From Halopenitus persicus (GTDB lineage: Archaea; Halobacteriota; Halobacteria; Halobacteriales; Haloferacaceae): DNA of 64,000 bases. A program made the translations under genes and the position numbers. The stretch is taken from positions 558,001-622,000 of the forward strand of contig NZ_AP017558.1 in NCBI RefSeq assembly GCF_002355635.1. Direction: 5' to 3'. The first letter of the stretch is position 1. Each line of letters opens with the position of its first letter. Under the pieces are notes generated by a model that saw nothing but the letters and a program-made list of their open reading frames with translations, was not told where the DNA came from and ran no database searches. This document shows positions 23,977 through 25,605 of the stretch, one piece after another.

Positions 23977-24110
23977 ACCAATCCGTAGGCCGCATCGGCG
24001 TTTAAGCGTTTTCGTGCCGTGGGTATCCATATCACAATACTGCTCCCGAGGGATCGAAGCACACGAAATCCACTCTCCCCGGGACGATTCAGCGTAATGC
24101 AAGGTGGAGC

Positions 24111-24144
24111 CTCCGACCTCAAGGAGCGAGCGAGTAGGTCGGAG
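24111..24144. repeat. Hairpin relic resembling a TnpB-element right end
   Basis: Perfect 9-base inverted repeat CTCCGACCT / AGGTCGGAG with a 16-base loop reading CAAGGAGCGAGCGAGT. Loop and stem edges match the hairpin at the 3' end of the tnpB gene (25481-25530), which has CCTCAA at the 5' shoulder and GAGCGAGTAGG at the 3' shoulder. It is probably the decayed end of an earlier related element, or a left-end structure of the present one. Confidence 0.55.
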
Positions 24145-24245
24145 AGGAAACCGACACGGTACTACACCAACCACGTTCGATGGCTGGCTGACTCCCTACC
24201 GAACCGTTACTAATATAAAAACAACAGCTTACATCTGAAACACGG

Positions 24246-25523
24246 ATGGAGGTACGTCGCACCGTCCCCGTCAAACTCGACGTGGCCGACAGCGACGCCG
24301 ACCTCCTCCACGAAACCATCTCCGAGTTCCTGTGGGCTGCCAACTACGTCGTCGACCACGCGTGGCAAGGCGAGTACAAGACCACGAGCAAAGCCGAGCT
24401 CCAACGCGAAACCTACGACGATGTGCGTGCCGAGACGCGTCTCCAAGCGAATCTCGTCCAGAACGCTCGCAACAAGGCCGCCGACGCCGTACAGAGCATC
24501 GTCGCTCGGTGGAAGCAAGGCGACTACGCGGGGAAGCCGCACTTCTCCGCGCCGACGCTCGTCTACGACAAGCGGTGTGCGACGTTCAATGACGACCACG
24601 CGACGCTCTCGACCGTCGAAGGTCGTATCACTGCGGAGTACGTCCTTCCCGACGAGAGCCGCGAAACGCCCCACTCGGAGTACCTGTTCAACGACGACTA
24701 CGAAGTGACTGGCGGGGAACTCCACTACCGCGACGGTGAGTTCTACCTTCACGTCCGAACAAAGGCGGACGCGGAGTTCGAGACTGCCGACGACGGCAAT
24801 GACGGGCACAACACAGTCCTCGGCGTTGACCTCGGCATCGAAAACGTCGCCGTTGCCTCGACAGGTGCGTTCTGGAACGGGTCAGAGTTGAACCACTGGC
24901 ACCGCGAGTTCGAGAAACGACGCGGCTCGCTTCAACAGCGTGGAACGCGAACAGCTCACGAAACCATCCAGTCGGTTGGACGTACCGAGACGGGTCGCTA
25001 CGACCACTTCTTACACACCGTCTCGAAAGAACTCGTCGCGGAAGCCGTCGAAAACGGCTGTAGCGTGATTGCCTTTGAGAACCTGACAGGGATTCGTGAG
25101 CGGATGCCGAACGTCAAGAAATTCCACGCATGGGCGTTCCGACGTTTGTTCGAGTACGTCGAATACAAAGCCGAGATGTTCGGTATCTCGGTCGAACAGG
25201 TGAGTCCTGCGTACACGAGTCAGCGGTGTTCTAAGTGCGGGACGACGCTCCGAGAGAACCGCCAGACGCAAGAGCGATTCTGTTGTGTGAAGTGTGGCTA
25301 CGAAGTGAACGCCGACTACAACGCGGCGAAGAATATTGGCCTGAAGTATCTCCGCTCGGCGCAAAAGTCGTCGGGCGGAGGCGTACCCGTAAACGTGCGC
25401 TTGAATCGCGGGACATTGAACGTGAATGGCGATTACGAGCCTTCCGCCGATGGCGGCCAGAACGGGAGTCCACGCGAAAGCCCCACCCTCAACGAAGCGA
25501 ACGGCGAAGCCGTGAGCGAGTAG
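24246..25523 (+). CDS. tnpB: TnpB RNA-guided nuclease (OrfB, IS1341-type)
   Basis: 425 aa. TnpB proteins are RuvC-type nucleases guided by an omegaRNA made from the element's 3' end. The RuvC triad appears intact: D195 in LGVDLGIEN, E278 in IAFENLTGIR and D357 in NADYNAAKNIG. The zinc finger has Cys 328, 331, 346/347 and 350 (RCSKCGTT, RFCCVKCG). The N-terminal helical domain starts MEVRRTVPVKLD and includes ANYVVDHAW. The stop codon lies in the 3' hairpin, as expected where coding and guide RNA overlap. No tnpA is nearby, so mobility would need help in trans. A frame disruption is not seen; it is probably active as a nuclease. Confidence 0.93.
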   Translation: MEVRRTVPVKLDVADSDADLLHETISEFLWAANYVVDHAWQGEYKTTSKAELQRETYDDVRAETRLQANLVQNARNKAADAVQSIVARWKQGDYAGKPHFSAPTLVYDKRCATFNDDHATLSTVEGRITAEYVLPDESRETPHSEYLFNDDYEVTGGELHYRDGEFYLHVRTKADAEFETADDGNDGHNTVLGVDLGIENVAVASTGAFWNGSELNHWHREFEKRRGSLQQRGTRTAHETIQSVGRTETGRYDHFLHTVSKELVAEAVENGCSVIAFENLTGIRERMPNVKKFHAWAFRRLFEYVEYKAEMFGISVEQVSPAYTSQRCSKCGTTLRENRQTQERFCCVKCGYEVNADYNAAKNIGLKYLRSAQKSSGGGVPVNVRLNRGTLNVNGDYEPSADGGQNGSPRESPTLNEANGEAVSE

Positions 25524-25530
25524 GGTGGGG
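25481..25530 (+). ncRNA. omegaRNA-like terminal hairpin of tnpB element
   Basis: Perfect 9-base stem CCCCACCCT / AGGGTGGGG at 25481-25489 and 25522-25530 encloses an inner hairpin ACGGC-GAA-GCCGT (25501-25513). It spans the tnpB stop codon and marks the right end. By family knowledge the RNA guide scaffold ends here and the guide is the sequence just beyond, starting TAGTTTACC; this is inference. Confidence 0.6.
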
Positions 25531-25605
25531 TAGTTTACCTCGGACGATCCCATCGGGGCGACCGGCCACCCGAGTCCGCGACGTGGCTCTTCCGGCGAGG
25601 TCTTC

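What the first reader, a model, noticed from the sequence alone, without database searches (positions are those of the whole stretch)
24111..25530. TnpB element with omegaRNA-like hairpin and a matching upstream relic hairpin
The 3' hairpin spanning the tnpB stop (9-base perfect stem with an inner 5-base stem) has a shorter cousin 100 bases upstream of tnpB, sharing CCTCAA and GAGCGAGTAGG at the stem shoulders but with a different compensated stem (CTCCGACCT/AGGTCGGAG). The covariation suggests both were functional RNA or DNA ends of related elements. The upstream one could be the last trace of a previous TnpB insertion at the same target, or a source of trans-acting guide RNA.
Basis: partly seen in the sequence, partly recalled or inferred. 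Interest (0 to 1): 0.55.

Follow-up and report, generated by a model that had tools for sequence, protein, structure and literature searches.

The report
Left-end hairpin of a TnpB transposon
The small hairpin upstream of this archaeal tnpB gene is the normal left end of the same jumping element, most likely the DNA handle that a transposase needs to move it, and not the trace of an older insertion or a spare guide RNA.

Summary
The hairpin at 24111-24144 lies inside a 1,446-bp IS1341-type element (24093-25538). Two more copies in the same genome carry the same hairpin and the same ends between unrelated flanks. A related genome lacks hairpin, tnpB and right end together at this site. A left-end model finds the hairpin 76-99 nt upstream of tnpB in 62 of 80 related loci, and upstream of tnpA in 20 of 48 Y1-transposase loci. 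A right-end model hits it at E 8.8e-6.

It carries the guide/cleavage pair expected of IS608-type single-strand transposition: GAGC at the stem's foot and TCAG 14 nt further out. All three pairs of that rule form in 63 of 69 left and 54 of 62 right ends of this hairpin class, against shuffle means of 34.6 and 31.4.

So it is a left-end DNA hairpin, probably used by a Y1 TnpA in trans. Ordinary in kind. The interesting by-product: a genome with one detected TnpA holds TnpB elements with three different matched guide sets but the same hairpin core.

The parts
24089..24092 (+). TCAG: left cleavage/target site (CL), kept in the left flank; predicted TAM of this TnpB
   Evidence: Common sequence of the three copies starts here, flanks unrelated; TAM role inferred
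24093..25538 (+). IS1341-type (tnpB-only) IS200/IS605-superfamily element, 1,446 bp, three copies in the genome
   Evidence: empty site in G002
24107..24110 (+). GAGC: left guide (GL), directly 5' of the left stem
   Evidence: Pairs with TCAG by the IS608 rule; 63 of 69 left ends of this class comply
24111..24144 (+). Left-end hairpin (IPL): CTCCGACCT / AGGTCGGAG with shoulders CCTCAA and GAGCGAGTAGG
24212..24220 (+). TATA-like box of tnpB (AATATAAAA), conserved in position; suggests a leaderless mRNA that excludes the left hairpin
   Evidence: Window and 26 relatives; promoter role inferred
24246..25523 (+). tnpB, 425 aa, intact
   Evidence: same length in the two other copies
25477..25480 (+). 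AAAG: right guide (GR)
   Evidence: Pairs with TTAC; 54 of 62 right ends of this class comply
25481..25530 (+). Right-end hairpin (IPR), also the expected 3' part of the omegaRNA; overlaps the tnpB stop
   Evidence: omegaRNA role inferred from ISDra2 and Halobacterium papers
25535..25538 (+). TTAC: right cleavage site (CR), last bases of the element
25539..25554 (+). Right flank; expected guide part of the omegaRNA (about 16 nt, by analogy with ISDra2)
   Evidence: Inference; flanks differ between the three copies

Best explanation
24111-24144 is the left-end imperfect palindrome (IPL) of the same non-autonomous IS1341-type element that carries tnpB and the right-end hairpin. As single-stranded DNA it would be bound by a Y1 (HUH) TnpA acting in trans. 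The 4-nt guide GAGC at its foot pairs with TCAG at the left boundary, and AAAG at the right hairpin's foot pairs with TTAC at the right boundary; this places both cleavages, forms the excision circle and directs re-insertion 3' of a TCAG site. The right hairpin does double duty: DNA end for TnpA and, with the flank as guide, 3' part of the TnpB omegaRNA, whose TAM would be the same TCAG. Shown: one unit, exact ends, conserved position, covarying stem, matched guides. Inferred: binding by TnpA, action in trans, TnpB cleavage and TAM.
For: Three copies with identical boundaries; empty site without hairpin; left-end hairpin 76-99 nt upstream of tnpB in 62 of 80 loci and upstream of tnpA in 20 of 48 TnpA loci, 17 of these 20 with the right hairpin too; these TnpAs cluster on a tree (2 changes, shuffled mean 15.6, 0 of 500 shuffles as low); stem covariation; guide/cleavage complementarity 63 of 69 and 54 of 62, at spacings of 13-16 nt; further guide sets in the same genome fit, read by hand. 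IS608 rule: PMC5934647, passages.
Against: 18 of 80 related loci lack the hairpin at that place, most of them one TnpB group of about 60% identity; 6 of 69 left and 8 of 62 right ends break the guide rule. The guide counts are over related sequences and were made only on ends that already match this hairpin class. The single TnpA found has other guides in its own element, so its action on this element is not shown. One other genome of the genus with such elements (G002) has no detected TnpA. Tree supports within the TnpA set are modest.
Confidence: 0.91

Rival explanations
1. Relic: the upstream hairpin is the last trace of an earlier TnpB insertion at the same target.
For: Such fusions and tandem left ends do exist elsewhere: end-only elements L021/L216 and L141, and a tandem left end in L129-L131.
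Against: The hairpin is inside all three copies at unrelated sites, absent from the empty site, and fixed in 62 of 80 relatives.
Confidence: 0.02
2. Source of a trans-acting guide RNA: the upstream hairpin is a second omegaRNA-like scaffold used by TnpB.
For: It scores against the right-end model (20.2 bits, E 8.8e-6) and shares the internal-loop core.
Against: No right-end tail after the stem, position upstream of the TATA-like box, no TCAG-flanked target for the would-be guide at up to 2 mismatches. Homology of form is explained by both being ends for the same TnpA type. No RNA data were seen.
Confidence: 0.03
3. The hairpin mainly regulates tnpB transcription (operator or insulator) and is kept for that reason.
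For: It sits upstream of the TATA-like box at a nearly fixed spacing.
Against: It is 18 nt from the exact left boundary, carries a matched guide/cleavage pair, and occurs in the same form upstream of tnpA. A regulatory side role is not excluded.
Confidence: 0.04

Closest known systems
IS608 (IS200/IS605 family, Helicobacter pylori) ends and TnpA (PMC5934647, passages)
   Same: Subterminal hairpins at both ends, 4-nt guides directly at their 5' feet, cleavage sites set by guide pairing, insertion 3' of a fixed tetranucleotide, no target duplication.
   Different: Here no tnpA in the element; target TCAG instead of TTAC; hairpins have a large internal loop with the CCTCAA/GAGCGAGTAGG core, and left and right stems differ.
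Haloarchaeal IS605-type and IS1341-type transposons and PATEs (PMC3119063, passages and one section)
   Same: tnpB-only elements with near-terminal palindromes at both ends and palindrome-only derivatives; this element belongs to that kind.
   Different: The passages I saw do not give guide/cleavage pairs; I could not compare the element with ISfinder entries.
ISDra2 TnpB with right-end RNA (PMC8612924, passages)
   Same: RNA from the tnpB 3' end and right end with a flank-derived guide of about 16 nt; TAM equals the TnpA target site.
   Different: ISDra2 carries its own tnpA and uses TTGAT; here TCAG is predicted only.
Halobacterium salinarum omegaRNAs / sotRNAs (PMC12558985, abstract and section 3.3.3)
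   Same: Right-end hairpin RNA of tnpB elements in a haloarchaeon.
   Different: Concerns the right end; the left hairpin here is read as a DNA end.

Membership tests
IS200/IS605 superfamily, IS1341 type | tnpB without tnpA inside the element | tested here: met
   Intact 425-aa TnpB; the one Y1_Tnp match of the genome lies elsewhere
IS200/IS605 superfamily, IS1341 type | subterminal hairpin at each end | tested here: met
   24111-24144 and 25481-25530
IS200/IS605 superfamily, IS1341 type | insertion 3' of a fixed tetranucleotide without target duplication | tested here: met
   TCAG before all three copies; right flanks differ and repeat nothing; empty site
IS608-type guide/cleavage pairing | 4-nt guides at hairpin feet complementary to cleavage sites (positions 1-2, 2-1, 4-4) | tested here: met
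   TCAG/GAGC and TTAC/AAAG here; 63 of 69 left and 54 of 62 right ends of the class
IS608-type guide/cleavage pairing | hairpin binding and cleavage by Y1 TnpA | not testable with these tools
   Only association: same hairpin upstream of tnpA in 20 of 48 loci
TnpB/omegaRNA system | TnpB protein family | tested here: met
   NF040570 184.1 bits over a cut-off of 100; Pfam PF07282 and PF01385 over cut-off
TnpB/omegaRNA system | expressed right-end RNA with flank guide and TAM-dependent cleavage | not testable with these tools
   No RNA or cleavage data
Second omegaRNA (upstream hairpin) | right-end tail next to a flank-derived guide, within a transcript | tested here: not met
   Tail is AGGAAACC, not TAGTTTAC; lies upstream of the TATA-like box
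Relic of an earlier insertion / PATE | hairpin present independently of the element | tested here: not met
   Inside all three copies; absent from the empty site

The most novel reading that the evidence does not exclude
The internal-loop core CCTCAA/GAGCGAGTAGG is a shared badge read by one clade of Y1 TnpA. TnpB-only elements that bear it are moved by that TnpA while keeping private 4-nt DNA guides, so one transposase serves several target sites in one genome: a natural counterpart of the engineered retargeting of IS608. At the right end the same core is also read as RNA by TnpB, so one motif serves two machines, and TAM preference and DNA guide must change together.
Probability: 0.4. Interest if true: 0.5.

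Novelty: new member of a known kind. Interest (0 to 1): 0.32.

Why it matters
It settles a plausible but wrong reading (relic or trans guide) and gives exact ends for a haloarchaeal TnpB element with many relatives. The by-product is a natural covariation data set for DNA-guided transposition. It predicts a target and TAM for each TnpB element (TCAG here, TTAG or TCAA for others in the same genome) and a trans-mobilising TnpA, all directly testable.

Tried and rejected
Relic hypothesis: rejected by copies, empty site and relatives. Trans guide RNA: no TCAG-flanked match to the would-be left guide and a position upstream of the TATA-like box. Rfam: only two tRNAs in the window at gathering scores, so no help. 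Hairpin stability alone is weak evidence for the left hairpin.

Do ends follow TnpA rather than TnpB? The other large TnpA clade has a short-loop hairpin of the CCCGCCG type, found in 12 of its 22 loci by an exact-stem search (one of the 12, L169, at a greater distance), and five of the eleven TnpB loci L076-L086, and L109, have a similar short-loop hairpin upstream. The TnpB tree could not decide: its label test compared the short-loop rows only with unclassified rows (7 changes, no better than shuffled), the label was wrong for L069 and L093, L017 was missed and L070 was dropped. This stays a lead.

Empty sites for the other two copies: for copy 3 the right flank aligned in G001 and G002 but the left flank did not; for copy 2 only part of the left flank aligned in G002. 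So there is one clear empty site, G002 at the window's own insertion. G001 also lacks the element there but is more diverged.

Guide-rule exceptions. Left: L051, L062, L087, L120, one of the two tandem ends in L129, and L202. Right: L116 and L118 (5' arm changed), L007 (TTAT), L021 (fused end-only element), L103 and L186 (GTAG at the fixed position, next to short repeats), L113 (one base shifted), L145. Rows entered the count only if they matched the core pattern and at least 5 of 6 outer pairs, in the loci held, identical ends once; so the count describes this hairpin class, not all TnpB elements. For left ends the spacing was free within 13-16 nt, in the shuffles too. My first shuffle did not re-choose the spacing and is superseded. 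The own-genome element B and C ends (fit) and the end-only element L216 (fits only at a spacing of 19 nt) were read by hand afterwards and are not in the counts.

The 48 TnpA loci are the best-scoring matches that two searches returned as loci plus the window genome's own, not a random sample.

Full report
Observation. Both hairpins exist as described. The right one (25481-25530) has a 9-bp outer and a 5-bp inner stem and spans the tnpB stop; the left one (24111-24144) has a 9-bp stem and a 16-nt loop and ends 101 nt before tnpB. A 9-bp stem alone is ordinary for this sequence, but the shared CCTCAA...GAGCGAGTAGG shoulders occur only at these two places in the window and never in 20 simulations.

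It is one element. The genome holds three copies of 1,446 bp. The other two are identical to each other and differ from the window's at 7 positions; all three keep a 425-aa tnpB. The common sequence starts with TCAG (24089-24092) and ends with TTTAC at 25538; the flanks beyond are unrelated. The upstream hairpin is therefore internal, 18 nt from the left boundary. In G002 (probably Halopenitus persicus, by matching contig lengths) the window's left and right flanks lie next to each other with no hairpin, no tnpB and no right end.

It is a fixed part of this element type. A model built from 40 left ends (the window's included) finds a left hairpin ending 76-99 nt before the start of the tnpB match in 62 of 80 related loci. 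39 of those 40 model sequences come from these same loci, so their hits are expected; the other 23 of the 62 were not in the model. The 18 loci without it: L052, L067 (411 nt of upstream sequence held), L069 (match starts at residue 45; a left hairpin lies far upstream), L076-L086 (most about 60% identical in TnpB), L092 (left-type hit elsewhere in the locus), L093 (hairpin further out), L109, L118. Several of L076-L086 and L109 have a short-loop hairpin upstream instead. The left stem covaries: 99.7% of cells pair, double-sided changes at 3 of 9 pairs, and slid controls drop to 35-52%. The window's left hairpin is 9 nt shorter than the 51-position family consensus, which explains 'shorter cousin'.

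A covariance model of 33 haloarchaeal right ends (the window's right end included, its left end not) hits 24111-24144 with 20.2 bits, E 8.8e-6 in the 64-kb window. The left-end model hits the right hairpin with 28.9 bits, E 4.7e-6. The two hairpins share a form.

Mechanism. In IS608 the cleavage sites are not read directly by TnpA but pair with 4-nt guides at the 5' foot of each hairpin: CL TTAC with GL AAAG, CR TCAA with GR GAAT (PMC5934647, passages). The text names the pairs of guide bases 1 and 2 with the second and first base of the site; the pair of the fourth bases I read from the sequences. The window's left end has TCAG, 14 nt, GAGC, stem; its right end has AAAG, stem, 4 nt, TTAC. Both fit. 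Over the ends of this hairpin class in the loci then held, all three pairs form in 63 of 69 left and 54 of 62 right ends, against shuffled means of 34.6 (maximum 46 in 5,000) and 31.4 (maximum 43). Left ends comply at spacings of 13-16 nt; of the other spacings tried (4-12 and 17-20) only 20 nt gave a hit, one. These counts are over related sequences, not independent events. The informative part is the distinct sets: TCAG/GAGC, TTAG/AAGC and TTAC/AATG at left ends, TTAC/AAAG and TCAC/GAAG at right ends, and, read by hand, TCAA/GAGT (left) and TGAC/CAAG (right) in another three-copy element of the same genome. The third position varies (TCAG, TCTG, TCCG with GAGC), as expected if it forms no canonical pair.

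Who moves it. The genome has one detected Y1 transposase, in a tnpA-tnpB element whose own ends carry the same hairpin core but other guides. The same left hairpin sits upstream of tnpA in 20 of 48 TnpA loci; 17 of those 20 also show the right hairpin, and the loci of the other three (L159, L184, L187) stop at contig ends. These TnpAs group together (2 changes on the tree against a shuffled mean of 15.6, 0 of 500 as low, though supports are modest), and the other large TnpA clade has another hairpin. I infer that this TnpA clade reads the hairpin core and moves TnpB-only elements in trans, with the target set by each element's DNA guide. In this genome three guide sets are each found on several elements: the window element (3 copies), the TTAG/TCAC set (the tnpA element, element B at C1:1876372-1877971, and a right end on C2:52864-52925), and element C (3 copies; a lone right end at C2:75883 has the same right guide). 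Against this: G002 holds such elements and shows no TnpA.

Why not RNA. A TATA-like box at -34 to -27 from the ATG is conserved in the window and 26 relatives aligned, which suggests a leaderless tnpB mRNA and leaves the left hairpin outside it. The left hairpin lacks the TAGTTTAC tail of right ends, and no TCAG-flanked match to its would-be guide exists in the genome at up to 2 mismatches. The right end is the expected omegaRNA part, as in ISDra2 (PMC8612924, passages) and Halobacterium (PMC12558985, section 3.3.3). No RNA data were available here.

Literature. Near-terminal palindromes at both ends, TnpB-only elements and palindrome-only derivatives are described for haloarchaea (PMC3119063, passages and one section); different left and right hairpins are noted in another IS200/IS605 survey (PMC7290912, passages); guides at hairpin feet are established for IS608. 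Six paper searches listed no title or abstract opening that reports guide/cleavage covariation in haloarchaeal TnpB-only elements. I read no paper in full and the library is partial, so I do not claim that it is unreported.

Verdict. Ordinary in kind: a standard left end.

Noticed in passing
L129-L131 (G001 C18:24285-24406, C18:263-384, C4:240-361): A multi-copy TnpB-type element of a related genome has its left end (hairpin, guide AATG) duplicated in tandem, 71 bp apart, in three places; other copies have a single left end. The copies sit near contig ends.
   Followed up: partly
L021/L216 (G000 C1:725594-725655) and L141 (G002 near C12:224188): End-only elements that look like a left end fused to a right end, with no tnpB between: PATE-like core deletions.
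   Followed up: partly
L127 and L128 (G001 C27:778600-779300, C22:22000-22700): A tnpB-less element of roughly 0.35 kb with both ends of this class at two unrelated sites (TCTG and TCCG), probably moved in trans.
   Followed up: partly
G000 C1:1200687, C1:1419930, C1:2433595: A second TnpB element in three copies (1,412-1,429 bp) with guide sets TCAA/GAGT and TGAC/CAAG; the sequence just after its left stem has a GGGGA-type repeat of varying number.
   Followed up: partly
L246 (G000 C1:1326727-1326744): A second genomic site with TCAG followed by 11 bases identical to the start of this element's right flank (the expected guide): a possible off-target or insertion site.
   Followed up: no
L076-L086, L109: Related TnpBs, several with a short-loop hairpin like that of another TnpA clade, hinting that TnpB elements can exchange end types.
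   Followed up: partly
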